Shown here: positions 26,285 through 42,612 of the stretch, in pieces
Layout of the letters: each line of letters opens with the position of its first letter
Position numbering within the stretch: position 1 is the first letter of the stretch
Source: Achromobacter xylosoxidans
Lineage (GTDB): Bacteria; Pseudomonadota; Gammaproteobacteria; Burkholderiales; Burkholderiaceae_B
Assembly: GCF_001457475.1 (NCBI RefSeq)
Contig: NZ_LN831029.1
Span: 186,001 to 250,000, forward strand
Length of the DNA stretch: 64,000 bases
Direction of reading: 5' to 3'
Notes under the pieces: model-generated
The model's database searches: none
Seen by the model: the letters and a program-made list of their open reading frames with translations, nothing else
What the model was told of the DNA's origin: nothing
Position numbers and translations under genes: made by a program

Positions 26285-27511
26285 TCATTCTTGATGTGAC
26301 GGTTCCTGGGAACCGATCGCATTATGCCCAGCGTTCGTGCCCGCGGTGCTGATTTTTCCCAAGCGCCAGGCCGACAGCGCCAGCAGCGCCGCGCCTGCCG
26401 CCAGCACCTGCGGCAGCGTCGCGCCCCAGCGCGCGGCGCCGGAAGCCAGCAGCGGCCCCACGATCTGGCCTGCGGCGAAGGCCGAGGTCATGACGGCCGC
26501 GGCGCGTGGCGCGGCACTGCCGGCCAGCCGCTGCGCCACCAGCATGCCCGACTGCGTGATGACCATGAACGTGCCACCGACCAGCAGCGCGGCGACGATG
26601 ACCGCGGCGATGTCGTGCCACAGCGCCACCGCCAGCATGCCCAGCGCCATCAGCGCCTGCGCGCCGCGCCACACCGTCTTGTCGTCGCGTGCCTGCGCCA
26701 CGCGCGGGGCCAGCAGGCACGACAGCGCCGCCGCCAGGCCGAATAGCGGCCAGGCCCAGCCGAACACCGCCGGATCGGGGATGATCTCGCGCGCCATGGC
26801 GGGCAGGAACGTGGCCGGGATGATGTAGCCCGCGCCGAAAATGCCATAGTGCAGCGCCAGCCGGCCGATGCCGGGCGGCAGGCGGCCGGGCGCGGGCGCC
26901 GAGGCCAGGTGGCGGGCCGGCCCGGGGCGATTCAGCCCCGGCCAGGCCAGTACCGCCAGCGCCAGGGTCAGCGCGCCCAGCGCGGTCCAGTTGGCATTGG
27001 CGTCCGCGCCCGCGGCCATCAATACCAGGCACGCCAGCCCGGTCAGCGCGATGCCGGCGCCGACGCCCGCGTAGGTAATGGCCGACACCGCCGGCGCGCG
27101 GGGATCGCCCGGTCCGACGGCGCGTGAAGCGGCCACGCAGATGAAGGCGCTGGCGCTGCCGTACCCCGCCGCCAGCCGCAGCAGGCTCCAGGCCAGGACG
27201 CCGTGGAACCACGGCATCGCCAGCGTCAGCAGCGCCACGGCGAGCAGGCTCACGGCCAGCATGGCGCGCGGATGGCGCGGTGGCCGCAGGGCCGCGGCCA
27301 ACGCGCCAAGCAGGTAGCCGGCGTAATTGGCCGAGGCCAGCCAACTGCCCTGCGCCAGCGACAGCCCGGCCTCCTGCGCCATCAACGGCCACACGGGCGT
27401 GAAGGCGAAGCGGCCGATGCCCATCGCCGCGGCCAGCGCCAGCGCGGCCGGCAGGGCCAGGCCGAGGGCGCCGCGGGGACGGGCGGTATCGGGGTGGGTG
27501 GCTATTGACAT
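26285..27511 (-). CDS. YbfB/YjiJ-type MFS transporter
   Basis: Major facilitator superfamily permease with 12 predicted helices in 408 residues. The N-terminal segment GIGRFAFTPVWPLMAQEAGLS followed by ANYAGYLLGAL is typical of the YbfB/YjiJ family, whose substrates are mostly unknown. First gene of a likely operon with the Bug receptor and nitronate monooxygenase. It is divergent from the LysR gene, with 65 bp of AT-rich sequence between start codons. Start chosen at 27511. Confidence 0.88.
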   Translation of the reverse strand: MSIATHPDTARPRGALGLALPAALALAAAMGIGRFAFTPVWPLMAQEAGLSLAQGSWLASANYAGYLLGALAAALRPPRHPRAMLAVSLLAVALLTLAMPWFHGVLAWSLLRLAAGYGSASAFICVAASRAVGPGDPRAPAVSAITYAGVGAGIALTGLACLVLMAAGADANANWTALGALTLALAVLAWPGLNRPGPARHLASAPAPGRLPPGIGRLALHYGIFGAGYIIPATFLPAMAREIIPDPAVFGWAWPLFGLAAALSCLLAPRVAQARDDKTVWRGAQALMALGMLAVALWHDIAAVIVAALLVGGTFMVITQSGMLVAQRLAGSAAPRAAAVMTSAFAAGQIVGPLLASGAARWGATLPQVLAAGAALLALSAWRLGKISTAGTNAGHNAIGSQEPSHQE

Positions 27512-27557
27512 GGCTCCCACTCTACGGCTGTACTAATATCTTGAATAGTGAATTATT

Positions 27558-27576: not shown

Positions 27577-28449
27577 ATGAGAAACTTGGATCTCGACGCG
27601 CTGCAGATCTTCAAGGCGGTGGCGGACCATGGCGGCGTGGCGCGCGCGGCGGTCCACCTGAACCGGGTGCAGTCCAATGTCTCGACGCGCCTGAAGCAGC
27701 TGGAAGCCACGCTGGAGGCGCCGTTGTTCCGGCGCCAGAACCGCCGCCTGGTGCTGTCCGAGCAGGGACGCGTGCTGTTGTCGTATGCGGACCGGTTGCT
27801 GCGCCTGTCGGCCGAGGCCCAGGCGGCCGTGCGCGATGGCGCGCCGCAAGGCCTGCTGCGCATCGGCACCATGGAAAGCACGGCCGCGGCGCGGCTGCCG
27901 CCGATCCTGGCGGCGTATCACGCGGCCTGGCCGCAGGTGCGCATCGAACTGGTGACGGGCACGTCCGGCGCGCTGGCCGCCAAAGTGCGCAACTATGAGA
28001 TCGAGGCCGCTTTCGTGGCGCAGCCTTTCGAGGCCCAGGGGCTGGCGCAGCAGCCGGCGTTCGACGAAGAGCTGGCGCTGATCTCGCCGCTGGCCTGGCC
28101 GGAAATCCACGGCCCCAAGGACGTCGGCGATCGCAGCGTCATTGCGTTCGCGGCGGGCTGTTCGTACCGCCGCATCCTGGAGGCCTGGTTCGGCCAGGAA
28201 GGCGTGGCCCCGGACAAGGTGATGGAATTCGCGTCGTACCACGCCATCGTCGCGTGCGTGGCCGCGGGGTCGGGCGTGGCGATCGTGCCGCGTTCGGTGC
28301 TGGCGCTGCTGGGGGCGGAGCCGTCGTTGCGCGTGACGCCGCTGTCCGGCAAGCATGGCCGGGCGCAGACGCGGTTGGTCTGGCGCGCGGACGACGAAAC
28401 GCCTGCATTGCAGGCGTTGCAGCAGCTACTGGCGCAGCGGCGCCAGTAG
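27577..28449 (+). CDS. LysR-family transcriptional regulator
   Basis: The 290-residue product has an N-terminal winged helix-turn-helix (ALQIFKAVADHGGVARAAVH; VQSNVSTRLKQLEATLEAPL) and a type 2 periplasmic-binding-like effector domain from about residue 90. It is transcribed divergently from the MFS-Bug-nitronate monooxygenase genes, so it most likely controls them; the effector is unknown. No strong Shine-Dalgarno sequence precedes the ATG. Confidence 0.92.
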   Translation: MRNLDLDALQIFKAVADHGGVARAAVHLNRVQSNVSTRLKQLEATLEAPLFRRQNRRLVLSEQGRVLLSYADRLLRLSAEAQAAVRDGAPQGLLRIGTMESTAAARLPPILAAYHAAWPQVRIELVTGTSGALAAKVRNYEIEAAFVAQPFEAQGLAQQPAFDEELALISPLAWPEIHGPKDVGDRSVIAFAAGCSYRRILEAWFGQEGVAPDKVMEFASYHAIVACVAAGSGVAIVPRSVLALLGAEPSLRVTPLSGKHGRAQTRLVWRADDETPALQALQQLLAQRRQ

Positions 28450-29236: not shown

Positions 29237-30154
29237 TCAACGCAAGGTATCGGTGCCACGCGGCACCGCATAGGCGTGGCGGAAATAGTCGCGCACCGCG
29301 CGCATCGGACCCGTGATGTCCGCGCCCTTGCGCCACGCCAACCCCACGTTCATCGGCGGGATCGGATCCTTCAACTGGATGGTCTCGATGCGGCGCCCTT
29401 CCAGCGACCACGGGCGATAGACCATGTCCGACAGCACCGCCACGCCGCCGCCATTGGCCACCATGCTGCGCACCGCCTCCACCGACGAGGTGCGCAGGCG
29501 CACGTCGGGGCGGAATGGCGTTTCGCTCCAGTAGCGCAGCGCGGTGTGCGCGGCCTCGTCGACCGTGAGCATGATGAACGGCTCGTGCGCCACGTCTTCC
29601 AGCGTGACGGTATCGCGCGCCAGCAGCGGATGACGCGCCGGCACCCACAGGCGCCGCGGCGAACCGAAGAAGTGTTCGACCGCCAGTTCCGGGTTCACCA
29701 CGTTCGAGGTCAGCAGCACCGCCATGTCGTAGCGGTGCGCGATCAGGCCTTCCTCGATGGCGTTGCGGTTGAGCTCGTGCAGCTGGATGTCCAGGTTGGG
29801 ATAGAGCTGCGACAGGCGCTGCAGGTGGTAGGGCAGGAAGTAGCCGATCACGGTGTACGACGCCGCCAGCAGCAGGCGGCCGCTCTCTCGCCCGTCGGCG
29901 CTGGGCATGCGCAGCGCCTCGTCGACCGACGACAGAATGTTGTAGGCATGGTTGAGAAAGCCGCGTCCGGTTTCGGTCAGCGCCACGCCGCTGGCGCTGC
30001 GCTGGAACAGCGGCGAGCCGACGATCTCTTCGAGTTCACGGATGGCGGTGGTGACCGCCGACTGCGAGATCGCCAACTGGATCGCCGCCTGCGAGATCTG
30101 TCCGAGTTCGGCGGCCGCGACGAAATATTTGAGCTGCCGGAGGGTGAGCGACAT
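29237..30154 (-). CDS. LysR-family transcriptional regulator of the adjacent carboxylase cluster
   Basis: The 305-residue product has the LysR winged helix-turn-helix (LRQLKYFVAAAELGQISQAA; SQSAVTTAIRELEEIVGSPL) and an effector domain from about residue 90 (GRLLLAASYTVIGYFLPYHL). It is divergent from the LamB/YcsF-biotin carboxylase-KipI/KipA-permease genes across a 258-bp region rich in palindromes, so it is the likely regulator of that cluster. Effector unknown. Confidence 0.9.
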   Translation of the reverse strand: MSLTLRQLKYFVAAAELGQISQAAIQLAISQSAVTTAIRELEEIVGSPLFQRSASGVALTETGRGFLNHAYNILSSVDEALRMPSADGRESGRLLLAASYTVIGYFLPYHLQRLSQLYPNLDIQLHELNRNAIEEGLIAHRYDMAVLLTSNVVNPELAVEHFFGSPRRLWVPARHPLLARDTVTLEDVAHEPFIMLTVDEAAHTALRYWSETPFRPDVRLRTSSVEAVRSMVANGGGVAVLSDMVYRPWSLEGRRIETIQLKDPIPPMNVGLAWRKGADITGPMRAVRDYFRHAYAVPRGTDTLR

Positions 30155-30412: not shown

Positions 30413-31183
30413 ATGAGCAAGGCGACGATAGACCTGAACTCCGACATGGGCGAAGGCTTTGGTTCCTGGAAAATCGGCGATGACGTGGACGACGCCATCA
30501 TGCCGCTGATCAGCTCGGCCAACATCGCCACCGGCTTTCATGCCGGCGACCCCAACATCATGAACCGCACCGTGGTCATGGCGCGCGAGCACGGCATCGG
30601 CATCGGCGCCCATCCCGGCTTTCGCGACCTGGTCGGCTTCGGCCGCCGCGACCTGAACGAGAACGCCGAAGGCCTGGTCAACGACATCGTCTACCAGGTC
30701 GGCGCGCTGCGCGAATTCGCCCGCCTCTATGGCCTGCGGCTGCAGCACGTCAAGCCGCATGGCGCGCTGTACATGCGCGCCGCGCGCGACGAAACCCTGT
30801 CGCGCCGGCTGGTGCAGACGTTGCGCGACCTGGAGCCGACGCTGATGCTGTACTGCATGGAGAACTCGCTGACCTGCAAGGTGGCGCGCGAGTTGGGTCT
30901 GCCGGTGGTGCGCGAGTTCTACGCCGACCGCGACTACGACGCCAGCGGCTCGATCGTGTTCACGCGCTACACCCAGGCGCTGGATCCGGAGCAGGTGGCC
31001 GACAAGGTGCTGCGGGCGTGTACCGACGGCAAGGTGCGCACCGTCGACGGCCGCGACATCCCGATCGGCTTCGATTCCGTCTGCATCCACAGCGATACGC
31101 CCGGCGCGCTCGGCCTGGTGCAGGCCACCCGCGCCCGCCTGGAGGCGCACGGCATCCGCATCGCGCCGCCGCAGTTGTCCTGA
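30413..31183 (+). CDS. pxpA: LamB/YcsF family protein (5-oxoprolinase subunit A-like)
   Basis: Member of the LamB/YcsF family; one subgroup is PxpA, part of the ATP-dependent 5-oxoprolinase PxpABC. The 256-residue product has the family N-terminus [20 protein letters not shown], then [42 protein letters not shown] and [16 protein letters not shown], which carry conserved His/Asp residues. Start chosen at 30413 (MSKATID), preceded by AAGGAGAT. First gene of a plus-strand operon with biotin carboxylase parts. The pxpA name fits the family; the true substrate may differ. Confidence 0.85.
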
Positions 31184-31222
31184 TCCGCCCATCATTCCCA
31201 TACATTCCAAGGAGAAAACCCC

Positions 31223-31465
31223 ATGTCGCAGCAAGAGATCCAGAGCCCCCTGCCCGGCACCTTCTACCGTCGTCCCAGTCCTGATGCGGCGCCGTTCGTC
31301 GAAGTGGGCGCCACCATCCAGCCCGGCGACGTGGTCGGCATCGTTGAAGTGATGAAGCAGTTCAACCAGATCGAGGCCGAGGTCGGCGGCGTGGTCGCCG
31401 AGATCCTGGTGGCCGATGGCGACCCGGTCGAACCCGGCCAGGCCCTGCTGCGGATCGAGGGCTGA
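31223..31465 (+). CDS. Free-standing biotin carboxyl carrier protein
   Basis: An 80-residue biotinyl/lipoyl domain on its own. The modification site is EVMKQF with lysine 45, a variant of the usual EAMKM, flanked by symmetric beta strands (PGTFYRRPSPDAAPFVEVG before, GVVAEILVADGDPVEPGQAL after). It lacks the N-terminal thumb and linker of AccB, so it is unlikely to be the main acetyl-CoA carboxylase carrier. A ribosome binding site AAGGAG precedes it. It lies 3 bp before the biotin carboxylase gene and presumably shuttles carboxybiotin between that enzyme and the KipI/KipA proteins. Confidence 0.88.
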   Translation: MSQQEIQSPLPGTFYRRPSPDAAPFVEVGATIQPGDVVGIVEVMKQFNQIEAEVGGVVAEILVADGDPVEPGQALLRIEG

Positions 31466-31468
31466 GGC

Positions 31469-32857
31469 ATGGGCGTGCATTCCTTCTACCGGCCGCGCCG
31501 CATCCACACCCTGCTGGTCGCCAACCGCGGCGAGATCGCGCTGCGCGTGATCCGCGCCGCGCGCGAGCTGGGCATGCGCACGGTGGCGGTCTACAGCGAC
31601 GCCGATCGCGACGCCCTGGCGGTGCGCCTGGCGGACTCGGCGGTGCATATCGGTCCGGCCCACGCCACCCGCAGCTATCTCAATGCCGACGCCCTGTTGG
31701 CGGCGGCGCGCGACAGCGGCGCCGACGCGATCCATCCCGGCTATGGCTTCCTGGCCGAGAACGCCGACTTCTCGCAGGCCGTGACCGACGCCGGCCTGGT
31801 GTTCGTCGGACCCGACGCCCACACCATCCGCAGCATGGGCGACAAGGCCGCGGCGCGCGCCTGCGCCAAGGCGGCGGGCGTGCCCACCGTGCCGGGCAGC
31901 GAGGGCGTGGTCGGGTCGCTGGACGAGGCCCTGAGCCACGCGGCGCAGATCGGCTATCCGTTGATGATCAAGGCGTCCGCCGGCGGCGGCGGCCGTGGCA
32001 TCCGCGTGGCGGCCGACGAAGCGCAGTTGCGCGAGGCCATCCCGATGGCGCAGGCCGAGGCGCGCGCCGCATTCGGCGACGGCGGCGTCTACCTGGAACG
32101 CTACCTGCCGCGCGCCCGCCATATCGAGGTGCAGGTATTGGGCGACGGCGAACGCGCGGTGCATTTGTTCGAGCGCGAGTGCTCGCTGCAGCGCCGCCGC
32201 CAGAAGGTGTTCGAGGAAGCGCCGTCACCGGCGCTGAGCCCCGCGCTACGCCAGGCGCTGTGCGAATCCGCGCTGCGCCTGACCGAATCGGTGGGCTATC
32301 GCGGCGCCGGCACGCTGGAATACCTGTACGACGAGACCCGCGGCGAGTTCTACTTCATCGAGATGAACACGCGCATCCAGGTCGAACATCCGATCACCGA
32401 GGCGATCACCGGCATCGACCTGGTGCGCGAGATGCTGCGCATCGCCGACGGCGAACCGCTGCGCTTGAAGCAATCCGACATCGTCATGCGCGGCGCCGCG
32501 ATCGAGTGCCGCCTGAACGCCGAAGATCCGGCGCGCAACTTCGCGCCCGGTCCCGGCACCGTGTCGCACGTACGCTGGCCGGCCGGGCCAGGCGTGCGCA
32601 TCGACTCGATGGTGTATGCCGGCAGCGTGGTGCCGCCCTACTACGATTCGCTGCTGGCCAAGCTGATCGTGTGGGACGAGGGCCGCGACGCCGCGCTGGC
32701 GCGCATGGCGCGCGCGCTGGACGAAACCGAATTCGAAGGCGTGCCGTCGACGCTGGCCCTGCATCGCGCCCTGGTGGCCGACGCGGGCGTGCTGGCGGGC
32801 GACTATCACACCAACTATCTGGAAAGCTGGATGCAGCGGCGGGAGGGGACCCAATGA
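31469..32857 (+). CDS. Biotin carboxylase subunit (AccC-like)
   Basis: ATP-grasp enzyme that carboxylates biotin with bicarbonate and ATP. The 462-residue product has the N-terminal LVANRGEIALRVIRAARELG, HPGYGFLAENADFSQ, glycine-rich loop KASAGGGGRGIRV, ECSLQRRRQKVFEEAPSP and the active-site FIEMNTRIQVEHPITEAITG (canonical except for small changes). The C-terminal biotin carboxylase domain is complete. It sits in an operon with its own carrier protein and no AccA/AccD-type or PccB-type carboxyltransferase. The acceptor is therefore probably not an acyl-CoA. Confidence 0.92.
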   Translation: MGVHSFYRPRRIHTLLVANRGEIALRVIRAARELGMRTVAVYSDADRDALAVRLADSAVHIGPAHATRSYLNADALLAAARDSGADAIHPGYGFLAENADFSQAVTDAGLVFVGPDAHTIRSMGDKAAARACAKAAGVPTVPGSEGVVGSLDEALSHAAQIGYPLMIKASAGGGGRGIRVAADEAQLREAIPMAQAEARAAFGDGGVYLERYLPRARHIEVQVLGDGERAVHLFERECSLQRRRQKVFEEAPSPALSPALRQALCESALRLTESVGYRGAGTLEYLYDETRGEFYFIEMNTRIQVEHPITEAITGIDLVREMLRIADGEPLRLKQSDIVMRGAAIECRLNAEDPARNFAPGPGTVSHVRWPAGPGVRIDSMVYAGSVVPPYYDSLLAKLIVWDEGRDAALARMARALDETEFEGVPSTLALHRALVADAGVLAGDYHTNYLESWMQRREGTQ

Positions 32858-33729
32858 CGGTGCGCTACACCCATGGCGGCGATGAATTCATCTTCGCCGA
32901 GATCAGCGAATCGATGTCGCTGGCCGCGTTCTTCAAGGGCATGGCGATCACGCGTGCGCTGCGCGAACGCGCCGTGCCCGGCGTCACCGAGATCTGCCCG
33001 GCCAACGCCTCGTACCAGATCCGCTACGACCCCGAGCAGGTCGCGCCCGAATCCATGCTGGCCATCCTGCGCGAGATCGAGGCCGGCATCGACCTGGACA
33101 ACCTGCGGCTCGACACCCGCGTCATCGAGGTGCCGGTGCTCTACAACGATCCCTGGACCCACGAGACGCTGATGCGCTTTCGCGAGCGCCACCAGGACCC
33201 GGAATCGACCGACCTGGAATACGCCGCGCGCATCAACGGCTTTGCCGATACCGATGCATTCATCGCCGCGCATTCCAGCGCGCCGTGGTTCGTGTCGATG
33301 GTCGGCTTCGTGGCCGGGCTGCCGTTCATGTTCCAGATGGTCGAGCGCGAACGCCAGCTCGAAGTGCCCAAGTACCTGCGGCCGCGCACCGACACGCCCA
33401 AGCACACGGTGGGACATGGCGGTTGCTTCGCCTGCATCTATTCCGTGCGCGGCGCGGGCGGCTACCAGATGTTTGGCGTGACGCCCGCGCCGATCTTCGA
33501 GCCCGCGCAGCGCCAGGCGCACCTGCGCGACTCGATGGTGTTCTTCCGTCCCGGGGACATCGTCAAGTTCAAGCCGATCAGCCGCGCCGAGTACGACGCC
33601 GCGGTGGCCGAGGTCGAGGCCGGCACCTTCCAGCTCGACATCCGTCCCGTGTCGTTCTCGCTGTCCGAATTCATGGCGGCGCCCGAACAGTACAACGCCC
33701 GCCTTCTGGAGACGCTCCATGTCGCATGA
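32854..33729 (+). CDS. KipI-like carboxyltransferase half, urea-carboxylase type (PxpB family)
   Basis: The 291-residue product belongs to the KipI/PxpB/allophanate hydrolase subunit 1 family. It is longer than typical PxpB (about 220-240): an extra region from about residue 90 to 145 (VIEVPVLYNDPWTHETLMRF onward, ARINGFADTDAFIAAH) and the block PRTDTPKHTVGHGG with CIYSVRGAGGYQMFGVT resemble the KipI-like part of urea carboxylase. The likely role is one half of a carboxyltransferase with the next gene's product. The start overlaps the biotin carboxylase stop by 4 bp (ATGA). Generic annotation would call it 5-oxoprolinase subunit B. Confidence 0.82.
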   Translation: MTVRYTHGGDEFIFAEISESMSLAAFFKGMAITRALRERAVPGVTEICPANASYQIRYDPEQVAPESMLAILREIEAGIDLDNLRLDTRVIEVPVLYNDPWTHETLMRFRERHQDPESTDLEYAARINGFADTDAFIAAHSSAPWFVSMVGFVAGLPFMFQMVERERQLEVPKYLRPRTDTPKHTVGHGGCFACIYSVRGAGGYQMFGVTPAPIFEPAQRQAHLRDSMVFFRPGDIVKFKPISRAEYDAAVAEVEAGTFQLDIRPVSFSLSEFMAAPEQYNARLLETLHVA

Positions 33730-34708
33730 CGAACCGCTCATCGAAGTAATCAAGCCCGGGCTGGCGACGTCGGTCCAGGATCGTGGCCGCCAGGGCTACT
33801 ACCACCTGGGCATTCCGCCCTCGGGCGCGCTGGACCAGTACGCGCTGGCCGCCGCCAATCTGCTGGTGGGCAATCCCGAGGACGCGGCGGTGCTGGAATG
33901 CACGCTGATGGGCCCCGAATTGCGCTTCACCCGCGCCGCGGTGATCGCCGTCACCGGCGCCGCCATGACGCCCAAGATCGATGGCCAGGCGCAGGCCTGC
34001 AACACCGCGCTGGCGGTGCCGGCCGGCGCCCGGCTGTCGTTCGATTTCGTGCAGGCCGGCGCGCGCGCCTGCCTGGCGATCGCCGGCGGCATCGACGTGC
34101 CCGAGGTGCTGGGCAGCCGCTCGACCTACACGCTGGGCGCCATTGGCGGCTTCGACGGCCGCCGCCTGCAGGCCGGCGACCGCCTGCGCGTGGGCGCGCC
34201 GCGCCCGGGGACGCGGGTCGGCCGTGCGCTGCCGCCGGAACTCGCCAGCCAATGCCCGAAGGAGCAGGTGCTGCGCGTGGTGCCGGGCCTGTACGACCAT
34301 CGCCTGATGCCGGAATCGGCCGCCTCGTTCTACGAGGACGCCTGGAGCGTGACCTCGGAGGCCGACCGCATCGGCTACCGCTACAAGAAAGGCCGCGCCC
34401 TGAAGTTCCAGCCGCGCGAGCAACCGTTCGGCGCGGGCGCCGATCCGTCCAACATCGTCGACGCCTGCTACCCGATCGGATCGATCCAGGTGCCGGCCGG
34501 GGTCGAGCCCATCATCCTGCACCGCGACGCCGTGTCCGGCGGCGGCTACGCCATGATCGGCACCGTGATCAGCGCCGACCTCGACAAGGTCGGCCAGATG
34601 CAGCCCAACCAGCAGGCGCGCTTCGAGCGGGTCACGCTGGAGACGGCCTTGCAGGCCCGCAAGGACTACCGCGCCCGCCTCGAGCGGCTGCGCGCCGCCC
34701 TGGGCTGA
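33719..34708 (+). CDS. KipA-like biotin-dependent carboxyltransferase family protein (PxpC family)
   Basis: The 329-residue product carries the KipA/PxpC domain: VIKPGLATSVQDRGRQGYYH at the N-terminus, SGALDQYALAAANLLVGNPE, VLECTLMGPELRF, ACLAIAGGIDVPEVLGSRST and SADLDKVGQMQPNQQARFER at the end. In urea carboxylase the carboxyltransferase domain is a KipA-like plus KipI-like pair; here the two are separate proteins with genes overlapping by 11 bp. With the upstream biotin carboxylase and carrier this makes a complete split carboxylase. Substrate unknown. Confidence 0.87.
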   Translation: MSHDEPLIEVIKPGLATSVQDRGRQGYYHLGIPPSGALDQYALAAANLLVGNPEDAAVLECTLMGPELRFTRAAVIAVTGAAMTPKIDGQAQACNTALAVPAGARLSFDFVQAGARACLAIAGGIDVPEVLGSRSTYTLGAIGGFDGRRLQAGDRLRVGAPRPGTRVGRALPPELASQCPKEQVLRVVPGLYDHRLMPESAASFYEDAWSVTSEADRIGYRYKKGRALKFQPREQPFGAGADPSNIVDACYPIGSIQVPAGVEPIILHRDAVSGGGYAMIGTVISADLDKVGQMQPNQQARFERVTLETALQARKDYRARLERLRAALG

Positions 34709-34861
34709 TCCGCGCCGCGCTTTCCCCTTGATTGCTGCTTTCCCTCCGGCCCGTTCCGACGGGCCGGACGGGCGCGTTCGCGCCTGTGCATTCGAGTTTC
34801 ACACGCTGCATGCCGTACCCGTCCGCATTCCGCGGTTCTTCAGCACGTCAGGAGAGCCTCC

Positions 34862-36199
34862 ATGGCCAACCTTGCTTCCAGCTCCACGTCCTCCGACCGG
34901 GACACTTCCCTCGCCACCGTGGCCGATGCCGACCGCATGGGCCGATTCCCGCTCACCATGGCCTGGTGGGCCGTGTGCAGCGCAATTTTCTACATCGTGG
35001 TCGGCGCCACGCTGGCGCTCAACTACGGCGCCCGCAACGCCATCATCGGCATGGTGCTGTCGGTGATTTCCTATGGCCTGATCAACGCCGTGATCTCGCG
35101 CTACGCCATCCGCACCGGCCAATCGGTGGCGCTGTTCTCGCGCGCGGTGTTCGGCACCTCGGGCGCGGCGTTGGCTACCCTGATCTTCTTCGCCACCGCC
35201 ATCTACTACGCCGTGTTCGAGGGCTCGGTGATGGCGGTCGCCGCGCACCACATGTTCCCGTCCGTGCCCTATTGGGCCTTCGCGCTGCTGGTGGTCGTCT
35301 ACAGCGTGCTGCTGATCTTCGGCAGCGTGCAGCGCTGGCTCGACAAGTTCAACGGCGTGCTGTTGCCGTTCTACCTGGGCGGCCTGCTGCTGGCCGTGGC
35401 GCTGGCCACGCGCGAATACGGCTACAGCGACGCCTGGCTGGCGTTCGGCCCGGCCGGCGGGCCGGTCGCGGGCGGCTGGTGGGATGCCTATGTGTACTAC
35501 ATGGGCGTCTGGATCCTGATGATGTTCACCTTCGACTACGCGCGCTTCGGCCGCCGCGAGGACGCGCGCTACCACGGCCGCTACAACTTCGGCATGCCGT
35601 TCTACCTGGTCACCTTCCTGCTCAACGGCGTGGCCGGAATCTACCTGGTTGCGATCATTCCCGGCGACGGCGCCTTGAGCGAGGTGTCGGTGGTGCTGGC
35701 GCTGCTCAAGCTGATGGGCCTGGGCGGCCTGTTCTTCGTGTGGGTGACGCAGACCCGCATCAACACCGCCAACTACTACCTGGCCACCATCAACATGCAG
35801 GCCTTCTTCGCGCGCTTCGGCCTGGGCCGCTGGCCGAAGGCGGCATGGGCGGTGGTGGTGGGCCTGGTGTCGTACGCGCTGATGCTGTTCGACGTGTTCG
35901 CCTATCTGCTGCAGGCGCTGGCCTACCAGGGCATCTTCGTGGTGGCGTGGGTCGCGGTGGCGCTGGTGCACATCCTGGCGGTGGGCGAGACCGCGCCGGC
36001 GCCGGGCGGCGGCAGCGCCTACAACCGGCGCGGGCTGGGCGCCTGGTTCGCGGGCGCGGCCAGCGGGCTGGTGCTGATGCACATGAGCGGCCTGGCCGCG
36101 AGCTTCGCCGCGCCGGCCAGTTTCGTGGTGGCGGCCGCGACCTACTGGCTGGGACAGGCGGCGGTATCGGGCCCGCGCATGCAGCGCGGCGGTGCCTAG
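34862..36199 (+). CDS. Purine-cytosine permease-like (NCS1) transporter
   Basis: Integral membrane permease of 445 residues with about 12 hydrophobic helices (LTMAWWAVCSAIFYIVVGAT; FALLVVVYSVLLIFGSVQ; WILMMFTFDYARFGRRED). The arrangement and the FDYARFGRR segment fit the nucleobase:cation symporter-1 family, which takes up cytosine, purines, hydantoins, allantoin or uracil. It follows the carboxylase genes after a 153-bp gap, so it probably brings in the substrate of that enzyme, which would then be a small N-heterocycle or cyclic amide. This is inference from context. A terminator on the other strand follows. Confidence 0.82.
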   Translation: MANLASSSTSSDRDTSLATVADADRMGRFPLTMAWWAVCSAIFYIVVGATLALNYGARNAIIGMVLSVISYGLINAVISRYAIRTGQSVALFSRAVFGTSGAALATLIFFATAIYYAVFEGSVMAVAAHHMFPSVPYWAFALLVVVYSVLLIFGSVQRWLDKFNGVLLPFYLGGLLLAVALATREYGYSDAWLAFGPAGGPVAGGWWDAYVYYMGVWILMMFTFDYARFGRREDARYHGRYNFGMPFYLVTFLLNGVAGIYLVAIIPGDGALSEVSVVLALLKLMGLGGLFFVWVTQTRINTANYYLATINMQAFFARFGLGRWPKAAWAVVVGLVSYALMLFDVFAYLLQALAYQGIFVVAWVAVALVHILAVGETAPAPGGGSAYNRRGLGAWFAGAASGLVLMHMSGLAASFAAPASFVVAAATYWLGQAAVSGPRMQRGGA

Positions 36200-36313: not shown

Positions 36314-37780
36314 TCAGCGCGGCAGTTCGGAACTGCCCATCAGGTAGGCATCGACCGAGCGGGCGCACTGGCGGCCTTCGCGGATGGCCCAGACCACCAG
36401 CGACTGGCCGCGGCGCATGTCGCCGGCGGTGAAGACCTTTTCAACGTTGGTGCGGTAGTCGTCGGTGTTGGCGCGCACGTTGCCGCGCGCGTCGCGGTCC
36501 ACGCCGAAGGCGTCCAGCACGGTCTGCACCGGCGACACGAAGCCCATGGCCAGCAGCACCAGGTCGGCCTTGATCTCGAATTCCGAGCCTTCGACCTCAC
36601 GCATTTTCATCTGGCCCGTCGACTCGTCCTTGAACCACTCGACACGCGAGCCGACCAGTTTTTCGACCTTGCCGTTGCTGCCCTTGAGCAGCTTGGTGGT
36701 CACCGACCAGTCGCGTTGGCAGCCTTCCTCGTGCGAGGACGAGGTGCGCATCTTCAGCGGCCAGTAGGGCCAGGTCATGGCCTTGTTCTCGGACTCGGGC
36801 GGCTGCGGCAGCAGCTCGAACTGCGTGACCGAGGCGGCGCCGTGGCGGTTGCTGGTGCCCACGCAGTCGGAACCGGTGTCGCCGCCGCCGATCACCACCA
36901 CGTGCTTGCCCTTGGCCAGCGTCTGGTTGGTCAGGCGGTCGCCGGCCACGGCCTTGTTCTGCTGGCGCAGGAAGTCCATGGCGAAGTACACGCCCGACAG
37001 CTCGCGGCCCGGCACCGGCAGGTCGCGCGGGGTTTCCGAGCCGCCGCTCATCACCACGGCGTCGAATTCGGCCAGCAGCGATTCCGGCGTGCGCACGGTC
37101 AGGCCGTCGGCCACCGGGTCGGACGGGTTGCCGATGTAGGTCGAGGGCGCGAACTCCACGCCTTCGGCTTCCATCTGGGAAATGCGGCGGTCGATCTGGT
37201 GCTTTTCCAGCTTGAAGTCGGGAATGCCGTAGCGCAGCAGGCCGCCGATGCGGTCGCTCTTCTCGAACAGCGTGACCGAGTGACCCGCGCGCGCCAACTG
37301 CTGCGAGCAGGCCAGGCCGGCCGGGCCGGAGCCCACCACGGCGACCTTCTTGCCGGTCTTGCGCGCCGGCACTTGCGGCGCGACCCAGCCCTCGGCCCAG
37401 CCCTTGTCGATGATGGCGTGCTCGATGGACTTGATGCCCACGGCGTCGCTGTTGATGTTCAAGGTACAGGCGGCCTCGCACGGCGCCGGGCAGATGCGGC
37501 CGGTGAATTCCGGGAAGTTGTTGGTGGAATGCAGCACATCCAGCGCGCGGCGCCAGTCCTGCTTGTACACCAGGTCATTCCAGTCGGGGATGATGTTGTT
37601 GACCGGGCACCCGTTGTTGCAGAACGGGATGCCGCAGTCCATGCAGCGCGCCGCCTGCTGCTTGGCCTGGTCGTCGGTCAGGTGCAGCACGAATTCGCGC
37701 CAGTTCTTCAGCCGCTTCTGCGGGGCCTCGGAGGCCTCCTGCAGGCGCTGGTATTCCATAAAGCCGGTAATCTTTCCCAT
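36314..37780 (-). CDS. gltD: Glutamate synthase (NADPH) small subunit
   Basis: FAD and iron-sulfur subunit that passes electrons from NADPH to the large subunit. The 488-residue product has the N-terminal cysteine clusters ([21 protein letters not shown] and [13 protein letters not shown]), the FAD-binding [18 protein letters not shown] and the NADPH-binding [15 protein letters not shown]. Start chosen at 37780 ([12 protein letters not shown]), the usual GltD N-terminus. It lies 8 bp downstream of gltB. Confidence 0.97.
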
Positions 37781-37788
37781 GGTATCCC

Positions 37789-40700
37789 TCACGCAGCCAG
37801 TTGTTGCGGGTTGGCTGCACGCCACATTTCACCCAATGCGCGGCGGTAGTCCGTCGGCATGACCTTTACGAATTTGCCGCGCGAGGCTTCCCAGTCGCCC
37901 AGGATCTCGCGGGCGCGGAAGCTGCCGGTGTAGCGGAAGTGGTCTTCCACCAGGCGGCGCAGGATGGCTTCATCCGTTTCGCGTTCGCCGCCGCGCTGCG
38001 CGCTGTGCCAGACGTCGATGTTGTTCTGGGCCTGCTGCTCGGCATGCGGCAGCACGGCTTCCAGTTCGACCATCGACAGGTTGGCGCGATGCTTGAGCGT
38101 GCGCTCCGGATCCCACACGTACGCCACGCCGCCCGACATGCCGGCGGCGAAGTTGCGGCCGGTGGCGCCCAGCACCACCACGGTGCCGCCCGTCATGTAT
38201 TCGCAGCCGTGGTCGCCGGTGCCTTCCACGACCGTGGCGGCGCCCGAGTTGCGCACCGCGAAGCGTTCGCCGGCCACGCCGTTGAAGAAGGCTTCGCCGG
38301 CCAGCGCGCCGTACAGGACGGTGTTGCCGGCGATGATGTGGTCGGGGCCGAAGCCGCGGAAGTCATTGGGCGAGCGCACGATGATGCGGCCGCCCGACAG
38401 GCCCTTGCCGACGTAGTCGTTGCCTTCGCCCACCAGGTCCATGGTGATGCCATGGGCCAGGAAGGCGCCGAAGCTCTGGCCGGCGGTGCCGTTGCACTGG
38501 ATGTGGATGGTGTCGTCCGGCAGGCCGTCGTGGCCGTAGCGCGCCGCCACCGCGCCGGACAGCATGGCGCCGATGGTGCGGTTGCGGTTGCGCACCGGCA
38601 CGATGAACGAGACCTTCTCGCCGCGCTCCAGCGCCGGCTTGCTGCGCTCGATCAGCTGGTGGTCCAGCGCGCCGGCCAGGCCGTGGTCCTGCTCTTCGGT
38701 CTGGCGCACGTCGGCGTCGGATTGGGTCTGGTGGAACACGCGGGCGAAGTCCAGGCCCTGCGCCTTCCAGTGCTCGACACCCGAGCGCATGTCCAGCAGG
38801 TCGGCGCGGCCGATCAGGTCGTCGAACTTGCGGATGCCCAGCTGGGCCATGATCTCGCGCACTTCCTCGGCGATGAAGAAGAAGAAGTTGACGACGTGCT
38901 CGGGTTTGCCCTGGAACTTCTTGCGCAGCTCCGGATCCTGCGTGGCCACGCCCACCGGGCAGGTGTTCAGGTGGCACTTGCGCATCATGATGCAGCCTTC
39001 CACGACCAGCGGAGCCGTGGCGAAGCCGAATTCATCGGCGCCCAGCAGCGCGCCGATGACGACGTCGCGGCCGGTCTTCATCTGGCCGTCGGCCTGCACG
39101 CGGATGCGGCTGCGCAGGCGATTCAGGACCAGCGTCTGCTGGGTTTCGGCCAGGCCGAGTTCCCACGGCGTGCCGACGTGCTTGATGGACGACACCGGCG
39201 AGGCGCCCGTGCCGCCGTCATGGCCGGCGATCACGACGTGGTCGGCCTTGGCCTTGGCCACGCCGGCGGCGACCGTGCCGACGCCGACTTCCGACACCAG
39301 CTTGACCGAGATCGAGGCCTTGGTGTTGACGTTCTTCAGGTCGTGGATCAGCTGCGCCAGGTCCTCGATCGAGTAGATGTCGTGGTGCGGCGGCGGCGAG
39401 ATCAGGCCCACGCCCGGCACCGAGTAGCGCAGCTTGGCGATGTACTCGGACACCTTGTGGCCGGGCAGCTGGCCGCCTTCGCCGGGCTTGGCGCCCTGCG
39501 CCATCTTGATCTGGATCTGGTCGGCCGATGACAGGTACTCGGCGGTGACGCCGAAGCGGCCGGAGGCGACCTGCTTGATCTTCGAACGCAGCGAATCGCC
39601 CTTCTTGAGCGCGACGTCGGCTTCGATGCGGTCGGAGCCGAGCAGCGAGGCCAGCGTGTCGCCGTCCTTGATGGTGCTCTTGCCCTGGCGCATTTCGGCG
39701 CGATAGCGCAGCTCGTCCTCGCCGCCTTCGCCGGTGTTGGACTTGCCGCCGATGCGGTTCATGGCCACGGCCAGCACCGAGTGGGCCTCGGTGGAGATCG
39801 AGCCGAGCGACATGGCGCCGGTGGCGAAGCGCTTGACGATTTCCTTGGCCGGCTCGACGTCATCGAGCGGAATGGCGCGCGACGGGTCGAAGCGGAACTC
39901 GAACAGGCCGCGCAGCGTCATGTGGCGGCGGCTCTGGTCGTTGATGATCTGCGCGTATTCCTTGTACGTGCGGTAGTTGTTGGCGCGCGAGGCGTGCTGC
40001 AGCTTGGCGATGGAATCGGGCGTCCACATGTGCTCTTCGCCGCGCACGCGATAGGCGTACTCGCCGCCCGCGTCGAGGTCGTTGGCCAGGACCGGATCGG
40101 TGCTGAACGCGGCCCGGTGCTGGCGCAGCGCCTCTTCGGCCACCTGGAAGATGCCGATGCCTTCGATGTTGGAGGCGGTGCCGGTGAAGTACTTGTTCAC
40201 CAGGCTGCTCTGCAGGCCCACGGCTTCGAAGATCTGGGCGCCGGTGTAGGACATGTAGGTGGAGATGCCCATCTTGGACATCACCTTGTTCAGGCCCTTG
40301 CCGATTGCCTTGATGAAGTTCTTGACGGCCTTTTCCGGGTCGCTCATCTTGCCCAGCGATTCCAGCGCCAGGTAGGGATGGATGGCTTCGGCGCCGTAGC
40401 CGCCCAGCAGCGCGAAGTGATGCACTTCGCGGGCCGAGCCGGTTTCCACCACCAGGCCGGTGTTGGTGCGCAGGCCGGCGCGGATCAGGTGCTGGTGCAC
40501 CGCCGAGGTGGCCAGCAGGGCGGGGATGGCCACGCGTTCGCTGTCGACCAGGCGGTCCGACACGATCAGGATGTTGTAGCCGCTCTGCACCGCGTCCACG
40601 GCGCGCGCGCACAGCGCGGCCACGCGGGCTTCGATGCCCTCGGGACCCCAGGCGGCCGGGTAGGTGATGTCCAGCTCGAAGCTGCGGAACTTCTTGCCGG

Positions 40701-42528
40701 TGACCTGCTCGATGTCGCGGATCTGCGCCATGGCGGCGAAGTCCAGCACCGGCTGCGACACTTCCAGGCGCAGCGGCGGATTGACGTTGTTGATGTCCAG
40801 CAGATTGGGCTTGGGGCCGATGAACGACACCAGCGACATCACCATCTGCTCGCGGATCGGGTCGATCGGCGGGTTGGTGACCTGGGCGAACAGCTGGCGG
40901 AAATAGTTGTAGAACGGCTTGGCGCGGTCGGACAGCACGGCCAGCGGGGCGTCGTTGCCCATCGAGCCGATCACTTCCTCGCCGGTCGAGGCCATGGGCT
41001 CGAGGATGAACTTGTAGTCTTCCTGGGTCCAGCCGAAGGCCTGCTGGCGATCCAGCAGCGACACCGACGATTGCGCCGGCACGCCGGCCTGGCGCGGGGC
41101 CGGCAGCGATTCCAGCTTGATCTGCAGCCGCTCGATCCACTGGCGGTACGGACGGCTGTTGGCCAGTTGCAGCTTGATCTCGGCGTCGTCGATGATGCGA
41201 CCTTGCTCCAGGTCGATCAGGAACATCTTGCCCGGCTGCAGGCGCCACTTCTTGATGATGCGGTTTTCCGGGATCGACAGGGTGCCGGCTTCCGAGGCCA
41301 GGATGACCATATCGTCGTCGGTCACCAGGTAGCGCGCCGGGCGCAGGCCGTTGCGGTCGAGCGTGGCGCCGATCTGGCGGCCGTCGGTGAAGGCGACCGC
41401 GGCGGGGCCGTCCCACGGCTCCATCATGGCGGCGTGGTACTCATAGAAAGCGCGGCGGCTTTCGTCCATCTGCGTGTGCTGTTCCCAGGCTTCCGGGATC
41501 ATCATCATCATGGCGTGGGCCAGCGAGTAACCCGAGTTCACCAGCAGTTCCAGGCAGTTGTCGAACGTGGCGGTGTCCGACTGGCCTTCGTAGACGATGG
41601 GGTAGAGCTTTTTCAGGTCGTCGCCCAGCACGGCCGACTGCATCATGCCTTCGCGGGCGCGCAGCCAGTTGAAGTTGCCCTTGACCGTGTTGATTTCGCC
41701 GTTGTGGGCGATCATGCGGTAGGGGTGGGCCAGCGGCCAGGCGGGGAAGGTGTTGGTCGAGAAGCGTTGGTGCACCAGCGCCAGCGCCGACACGGTGCGC
41801 GGGTCGGCCAGGTCGCGGTAGTAGCGGCCGACCTGGTCGGCCAGCAGCAGGCCCTTGTAGACCACGGTGCGCACCGAGGCCGAGGGCACGAAATATTCCT
41901 TGCCATGCGCCAGGTGCATGTTCTGGATGGCGTGGCTGGCGGTCTTGCGGATCACGTACAGCTTGCGTTCCAGCGCGTCGGGCACCATCACGTCGGCGCC
42001 GCGGCCGATGAACAACTGGCGGATCACGGGTTCGCAGTCGCGCACGGTGGGCGACATCGGCATGTCGACGTCCACGGGCACGTTGCGCCAGCCCAGCACG
42101 ACCTGGCCTTCGGCGCGCACCGAGCGCTCCAGTTCCTGTTCGCAGGCCAGGCGCGAGGCGGTTTCCTTGGGCAGGAACACCATGGCCACGCCGTATTCGC
42201 CGGGCGGCGGCAGGGTGATGCCATGCTGGGCGAACTCGTCGCGGTAGAGCGTGTCGGGAATCTGGATCAGGATGCCGGCGCCGTCGCCCATCAGCTTGTC
42301 CGCGCCCACCGCGCCGCGGTGATCGAGGTTCTCCAGGATCTTCAGGCCCTGCTGGATGATGGCGTGGCTTTTCTTGCCCTTGATGTGCGCCACGAAGCCC
42401 ACGCCACAGGCGTCATGTTCGTTCTTGGGGTGGTACAGGCCCTGGGCGGGCGGCAGACCGATGCGGCTGGCATCGATCGGGGTCGCCTTGGGGGTGGGAC
42501 AGGAATCGTTCGGGGTGGTGTGGGGCAT
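37789..42528 (-). CDS. gltB: Glutamate synthase (NADPH) large subunit
   Basis: Makes two glutamates from glutamine and 2-oxoglutarate. The 1579-residue product begins with a propeptide of about 40 residues and then the catalytic Cys41 of the class II glutaminase ([18 protein letters not shown]). A central domain, the FMN-binding synthase domain ([40 protein letters not shown]), the 3Fe-4S cysteines in [15 protein letters not shown] and a C-terminal GXGXG beta-helix follow. Start chosen at 42528 (MPHTTPND) because CGGAG lies 6 bp upstream; 42582 is an alternative without such a site. Largest gene of the window. Confidence 0.97.
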
Positions 42529-42612
42529 GGCGCGCTCCGCAGTAAAGACTGCGTTCCAATGTTGCAGTGCAGGAACGGACAATACCCCCGTGCGTAGTAG
42601 GGTGCAATAAGA

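What the first reader, a model, noticed from the sequence alone, without database searches (positions are those of the whole stretch)
30413..36199. Split urea-carboxylase-like enzyme with a LamB/YcsF protein and an NCS1 permease
Seen: in one operon-like run there is a LamB/YcsF protein, a lone 80-residue biotin carrier (K45 in EVMKQF), a biotin carboxylase, a KipI-like and a KipA-like protein with overlapping genes, and a nucleobase-type permease. Known: in urea carboxylase the carboxyltransferase domain is a KipA-like plus KipI-like pair alongside biotin carboxylase and carrier domains, while PxpABC 5-oxoprolinase lacks biotin parts. Here the KipI protein is longer than PxpB and carries blocks recalling urea carboxylase. 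No allophanate hydrolase is present. Inference: a biotin- and ATP-dependent N-carboxylase acts on an imported cyclic amide or N-heterocycle, and the LamB/YcsF protein opens the product.
Basis: partly seen in the sequence, partly recalled or inferred. Interest (0 to 1): 0.72.

Follow-up and report, generated by a model that had tools for sequence, protein, structure and literature searches.

The report
Biotin-dependent lactam-opening enzyme operon
A conserved bacterial gene set looks like urea carboxylase taken apart into separate proteins and re-used, probably to open stable ring-shaped amides such as 2-pyrrolidinone so that the cell can eat them.

The parts
29237..30154 (-). Divergent LysR-type regulator
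   Evidence: PF03466/PF00126; a divergent LysR stands beside LamB in most related loci
30413..31183 (+). LamB/YcsF (PxpA-family) protein, proposed ring-opening hydrolase
   Evidence: PF03746 305 bits; PxpA subfamily NF003814 305 bits, cut-off 226
31223..31465 (+). 80-aa biotin carboxyl carrier protein
   Evidence: NF005457 132 bits, cut-off 87
31355..31357 (+). Codon of K45, predicted biotinylated lysine in EVMKQF
   Evidence: Sequence; EVMK in 86 of 88 carriers matched; the other two are a different carrier (L090) and a short contig (L184)
31469..32857 (+). Biotin carboxylase subunit (PRK12833 type)
   Evidence: NF009471 826 bits, cut-off 686; of six motif patterns tried on 90 BCs (window included) four were in 90, one in 81 and one in 42 (the roles of the motifs are recalled)
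32854..33729 (+). KipI-like carboxyltransferase subunit, subdomains C and D, UC-like
   Evidence: PF02682; TIGR02712 120 bits, TIGR00370 77; trees; fold
33370..33372 (+). Codon of KipI K173, aligned with the likely general base Lys1605 of K. lactis urea amidolyase
   Evidence: Alignments (position counted by hand); role in PMC5770610 (passage); conservation
33719..34708 (+). KipA-like carboxyltransferase subunit, subdomains A and B
   Evidence: PF02626 308 bits; TIGR00724 276 (cut-off 230), UC 249, PxpC 220; tree
34862..36199 (+). NCS1-fold permease without a Pfam match
   Evidence: AlphaFold2 model, mean pLDDT 74.5; the five best Foldseek rows are CodB and Mhp1 entries, E from 1.1e-8

Best explanation
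A split, biotin- and ATP-dependent lactam (cyclic amide) carboxylase-hydrolase. The permease imports a small neutral cyclic amide. BC carboxylates the biotin on the 80-aa carrier using ATP and bicarbonate. KipI-KipA, built like the carboxyltransferase domain of urea carboxylase and keeping its general-base lysine, moves the carboxyl group to the ring nitrogen. The N-carboxy-lactam is now imide-like and weakened, and the LamB/YcsF protein hydrolyses it; the carbamate then loses CO2, leaving an omega-amino acid. Leading substrate guess: 2-pyrrolidinone (gamma-butyrolactam) to GABA, then GabT/GabD to succinate. Shown by computation: gene set, clades, kept lysine, folds, neighbour genes. Inferred: every catalytic step, the substrate, biotinylation. 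The confidence given is for a lactam or cyclic-amide carboxylase-hydrolase; about 0.35 for 2-pyrrolidinone itself.
Against: 23 of 35 Pseudomonas loci lack BC and carrier, with KipI/KipA dN/dS 0.02-0.06 in the nine pairs that include a BC-minus member and gave a value; in a genus draw 29 of 46 genomes with this KipI have no such BC. All 15 Pseudomonas genomes searched hold other BC-like proteins, so supply by a shared BC is possible but untested. GabT is beside 0 of 26 loci from the even draws (25 of them family members, several on short contigs) and GabD over cut-off beside 1; 19 of 50 genomes have no GabT over cut-off. One of 19 control stretches also had a GabT. Five of seven HyuA neighbours miss the caprolactamase cut-off. 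AU test against grouping KipI with PxpB is only p = 0.04 and long branches meet. The KipI model is poor (pLDDT < 50) right after K173, residues 174-204.
Confidence: 0.62

Rival explanations
1. A biotin-boosted 5-oxoprolinase: the set opens 5-oxoproline to glutamate, as PxpABC does.
For: LamB/YcsF passes the PxpA subfamily cut-off; PxpABC is the nearest known use of such a trio; many Pseudomonas loci hold only LamB-KipI-KipA, the PxpABC make-up.
Against: KipI misses the PxpB cut-off that the host's own PxpB passes; separate clades; K173 is R in the PxpB rows; the host and 18 of 18 further whole genomes with this KipI also hold a CT_C_D protein of at least 202 bits, the range of PxpB and type B; neighbours include caprolactamase and GabT/GabD.
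Confidence: 0.12
2. A biotin-dependent carboxylase for another imported N-heterocycle or acyclic amide (hydantoin, dihydropyrimidine, imide, a urea derivative), with LamB/YcsF opening the product.
For: Same anatomy; the NCS1 fold is shared with a hydantoin and a cytosine transporter; HyuA/HyuB relatives that are not caprolactamase by cut-off lie near five loci.
Against: Of the neighbours scanned, the catabolic ones over a curated cut-off in the same run point to lactams and GABA; the host has no allophanate hydrolase near the cluster.
Confidence: 0.18
3. KipI-KipA-LamB act on the lactam without biotin, and BC plus carrier are a separable accessory or a second activity.
For: Joint absence of BC and carrier in many Pseudomonas (fewest changes 6 on the tree, 3 forced by starred branches) with intact, selected KipI/KipA; PxpB-PxpC are described as an ATP-hydrolysing pair with no biotin protein named (PMC8453981 passage).
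Against: K173 and the other near-invariant KipI residues are kept in BC-minus proteins; one KipA position is not; other BC-like proteins exist in 15 of 15 genomes searched; 9YX5 shows related proteins bound to a shared carboxylase complex.
Confidence: 0.2
4. An acetyl-CoA carboxylase, as the BC and carrier are named in databases.
For: NCBIfam names of PRK12833 and PRK07051.
Against: The only carboxyltransferase parts in the run are CT_A_B and CT_C_D, the UC/KipI type; in 17 of 17 Pseudomonas genomes of the draw that have this BC it lies directly beside KipI.
Confidence: 0.02

Closest known systems
Urea carboxylase / urea amidolyase (TIGR02712; K. lactis 3VA7, 5I8I)
   Different: Split over four genes instead of one chain; no allophanate hydrolase near; LamB/YcsF instead; own clades; no chain reaches the TIGR02712 cut-off
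PxpABC 5-oxoprolinase
   Same: LamB/YcsF plus KipI plus KipA trio
   Different: Dedicated BC and carrier; longer KipI with K173 instead of R; below the PxpB cut-off that the host's own PxpB passes
Caprolactamase / OplAB / hydantoinase A-B
   Same: ATP- and bicarbonate-dependent opening of lactams (PMC8453981, PMC11033972 passages); such genes sit in the same run in L082 and L185
   Different: Other protein families; no biotin named; OplAB prefers the six-membered ring and its abstract reports trace activity on gamma-butyrolactam (a table entry reaches 25% conversion)
M. smegmatis acyl-CoA carboxylase complex with MSMEG_0435-0436 (PDB 9YX5)
   Same: KipI/KipA-type proteins physically joined to a biotin-dependent carboxylase (title)
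'Type B' clusters in Pseudomonas (L168-L170)
   Same: LamB/YcsF, BC, carrier, KipI and KipA together
   Different: Short KipI with R at the key site (one scanned is over the PxpB cut-off, 193 bits); separate clade

Membership tests
Urea carboxylase | One chain scoring over TIGR02712 cut-off 1303.85 | tested here: not met
   BC 554, KipA 249, KipI 120, carrier 31; the host's real UC scores 1958
Urea carboxylase | General-base lysine of the carboxyltransferase site | tested here: met
   K173 in window; K in 99 of 99 family rows and 25 of 25 further loci
Urea carboxylase | Allophanate hydrolase alongside | tested here: not met
   No TIGR02713 match inside the window; the one over cut-off is beside the fused UC
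Urea carboxylase | Carboxylates urea | not testable with these tools
   Needs enzyme assay
PxpABC 5-oxoprolinase | PxpA family protein | tested here: met
   NF003814 305 bits, cut-off 226
PxpABC 5-oxoprolinase | PxpB over cut-off (TIGR00370, 145.55) | tested here: not met
   77 bits; the host's own PxpB 190, another 178
PxpABC 5-oxoprolinase | PxpC over cut-off (NF045499, 500) | tested here: inconclusive
   220 bits, but the host's own PxpC-type protein also misses it with 267, so the cut-off does not discriminate here
PxpABC 5-oxoprolinase | Works on 5-oxoproline | not testable with these tools
   Needs assay
Biotin-dependent carboxylase (general) | Biotin carboxylase over curated cut-off | tested here: met
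   NF009471 826, cut-off 686
Biotin-dependent carboxylase (general) | Biotin carrier over curated cut-off with acceptor lysine | tested here: met
   NF005457 132, cut-off 87; EVMK in 86 of 88; biotinylation itself not tested
NCS1 transporter | NCS1 fold | tested here: met
   Five best Foldseek rows CodB and Mhp1, model pLDDT 74.5
NCS1 transporter | Pfam sequence model match | tested here: not met
   No meaningful Pfam match at E up to 10
Acetyl-CoA carboxylase | Acyl-CoA type carboxyltransferase subunits in the set | tested here: not met
   KipI and KipA match only CT_C_D and CT_A_B

The most novel reading that the evidence does not exclude
Nature has a biotin route to open unstrained lactams: carboxybiotin puts CO2 on the ring nitrogen of 2-pyrrolidinone (and like lactams), and a LamB/YcsF protein hydrolyses the N-carboxy-lactam to GABA. 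In many Pseudomonas the same KipI-KipA pair has dropped its own BC and carrier and borrows those of another carboxylase.
Probability: 0.3. Interest if true: 0.8.

Novelty: new variant of a known kind. Interest (0 to 1): 0.6.

Why it matters
Public records label these genes in pieces as 5-oxoprolinase, acetyl-CoA carboxylase, allophanate hydrolase or carboxyltransferase subunits, so a coherent enzyme system, present in 16 of 398 evenly drawn Pseudomonadota genomes (own genome included), goes unnamed. [quoted passage not shown] It would also add N-carboxylation by biotin to the ways of weakening an amide, and hint at how PxpB/PxpC themselves work.

Tried and rejected
Reading the permease by sequence gave no useful Pfam, NCBIfam, PHROGs or PDB match; only the fold placed it. 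Aldehyde dehydrogenases near L088 (ExaC) and L089 (beside hydroxycinnamate genes) and the Burkholderia L052 aminotransferase (BioA) were dropped from the GabT/GabD counts; five more Burkholderia rows clustered with the BioA were dropped with it unscanned. GabD of L200 misses its cut-off. One search printed a probability for GabT clustering from a small rate sample; I do not use it, since the loci are neither independent nor picked at random. With the 50-genome rate (43 GabT in about 271 Mb, my sum of the sizes listed) about 0.3 would be expected in the 2.1 Mb of loci against 9 seen, in roughly 6 lineages by my count; but one of 19 control stretches (0.29 Mb) had one too. Set aside: L195 (221-bit hit, not this family); L070, L072, L084, L202 and L184 are short or contig-edge loci. 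The PxpC cut-off was first taken as evidence and then dropped. The large protein search (search for homologous proteins) was not used. P. putida KT2440 has a 5-gene 'butyrolactam catabolism' fitness module (PMC10949508, Table 1); its genes are in a supplement that I could not read. No paper describing this gene set was found in searches.
Full report
What is there. The window holds, at 30413-36199, six co-directional genes with a divergent LysR gene at 29237-30154. BC and KipI overlap by four bases and KipI and KipA by eleven. LamB/YcsF passes a PxpA subfamily model; the carrier and BC pass the models PRK07051 and PRK12833, whose names say acetyl-CoA carboxylase; KipI scores 120 bits to urea carboxylase (UC) and 77 to PxpB (cut-off 145.55); KipA scores 276 to the general 5-oxoprolinase/urea amidolyase domain, 249 to UC and 220 to PxpC. 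The PxpC cut-off of 500 says little, since the host's other KipA-type protein scores 267.

The host. The genome (6.8 Mb) has three CT_C_D proteins and two LamB/YcsF proteins. One set, near 510 kb, is a PxpB-PxpC-PxpA run with PxpB over its cut-off (190 bits) and a PxpA of 373 bits. The third, at 5.53 Mb, is a fused 1211-aa UC (1958 bits) beside allophanate hydrolase (840 bits) and a urea-transporter binding protein UrtA (590 bits). It is the only allophanate hydrolase over cut-off in the genome, and none of the 15 weaker or stronger matches lies in the window. So both obvious functions are covered elsewhere.

Distribution. This KipI (400 bits or more) was in 7 of 200 genomes of the host's family, own included; 46 of 149 of the genus Pseudomonas (one of the 46 partial); 15 of 240 of the class of an alphaproteobacterial centre (one is a 221-bit distant hit); and 16 of 398 Pseudomonadota, 13 of 213 genera, own included. 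Of 115 loci read (window, 8 plasmid, 80 best genome hits, 26 from the draws), 86 hold LamB, carrier, BC, KipI and KipA; 22 lack BC and carrier and L090 has only another kind of carrier; L184, L070, L072, L084 and L202 are short or edge contigs; L195 is not of the family.

Transport. By BLAST, permeases like the window's are in 37 of 115 loci and a different, TorT-like binding protein of an ABC transporter in 35. The permease model has mean pLDDT 74.5 and its five best PDB rows are CodB and Mhp1, described there as a cytosine transporter and an NCS1 transporter solved with a hydantoin.

Biotin proteins. The carrier motif EVMK is in 86 of 88 matched carriers. bioB lies near 10 of 115 loci, in Burkholderia, Glaciimonas, Acidiphilium and Pseudomonas. 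Yet 23 of 35 Pseudomonas loci lack BC and carrier. None of the 23 shows the permease within the stretch held, though in two the contig ends too soon to tell; of the 12 with BC, nine have it, two lack it and one contig ends. In 15 Pseudomonas genomes searched whole, this BC is over cut-off in the 4 whose locus has it and in none of the 11 others. In the genus draw 17 of 46 genomes with this KipI have the BC, in all 17 directly beside KipI, and 29 do not. On the KipI+KipA tree presence needs at least 6 changes, 3 forced by starred branches; the tree cannot tell gain from loss. KipI and KipA dN/dS is 0.01-0.06 in the 11 of 13 pairs that gave a value, with or without BC. Every KipI position near-invariant in BC-bearing rows stays so in BC-minus rows; one KipA position does not. 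A BC-minus KipI scores 92 bits to UC and 67 to PxpB. So the function does not need the dedicated BC. A shared BC is the simplest answer: each of the 15 genomes has other BC-like proteins, and PDB 9YX5 is titled as an M. smegmatis acyl-CoA carboxylase complex with the KipI/KipA-type proteins MSMEG_0435-0436 bound. That is an inference.

Substrate. Neighbours bear on it. (a) Caprolactamase: L185 runs CapB-CapA-LamB-carrier-BC-KipI-KipA (CapA 1225, CapB 1108 bits) and L082 has CapB-CapA after KipA (1120, 1153), all over cut-offs of 1000; five more loci have HyuA relatives at 481-529 bits, under it. (b) GabT over its cut-off in nine loci: three Variovorax, Rhodoferax, Hydromonas, a bin titled Deltaproteobacteria, Acidovorax, Ruegeria and one Pseudomonas. 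GabD over cut-off in L041, L061, L066, L086, L105 and L182; L095 was not scanned. In Hydromonas the NCS1-bearing cluster sits between gabT and gabD; in three Variovorax gabT, and in two gabD, follows the ABC genes. In 4 of 5 genomes searched the linked GabT is the only one over cut-off. (c) Against: none of the 26 loci from the draws has GabT by BLAST and one has GabD over cut-off, and 19 of 50 genomes have no GabT over cut-off. So GABA is a fair guess for part of the family, lactams a better one for the whole.

Mechanism and rivals. Lactam N-carboxylation followed by hydrolysis mirrors urea to allophanate. That bicarbonate helps to activate lactams is not alien: caprolactamase and OplAB need it (PMC8453981 and PMC11033972, passages), though by other protein families. 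The rivals are set out in their field.

Verdict. The strongest new facts are the kept lysine, the lactamase neighbours and the scattered absence of the biotin genes in Pseudomonas. It is a new variant built of known parts, widespread and unnamed. All catalytic claims await a bench.

Noticed in passing
L168, L169, L170: A second kind of BC-carrier-PxpB-PxpC-PxpA cluster in Pseudomonas, with short PxpB-like KipI; L169 has a GabT about 7 kb away.
   Followed up: partly
window 27577-28449 and 26285-27520: A LysR gene scoring 322 bits to putrescine regulator PtrR (cut-off 400) and a divergent YbfB-type MFS gene upstream of the cluster; a YbfB-type gene also lies downstream of gabTD in Variovorax L061.
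   Followed up: no
window 36314-42582: Glutamate synthase small (TIGR01317, 748 bits) and large (NF008730, 1694 bits) subunits lie directly downstream of the permease on the other strand.
   Followed up: partly
Pseudomonas loci L089-L125 without BC: The permease is missing as well wherever BC and carrier are missing and the contig is long enough to tell, although they flank KipI-KipA on opposite sides.
   Followed up: partly
L087: Locus titled Deltaproteobacteria falls, with weak support, among betaproteobacterial KipI rows; possibly transfer or a mis-binned contig.
   Followed up: no
window 34709-34861: A GC-rich inverted repeat appears by eye in the gap between KipA and the permease, perhaps limiting read-through.
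   Followed up: no
host family: The cluster is patchy near home: of 11 genomes of the host's genus in the draw, own included, 3 have this KipI.
   Followed up: no
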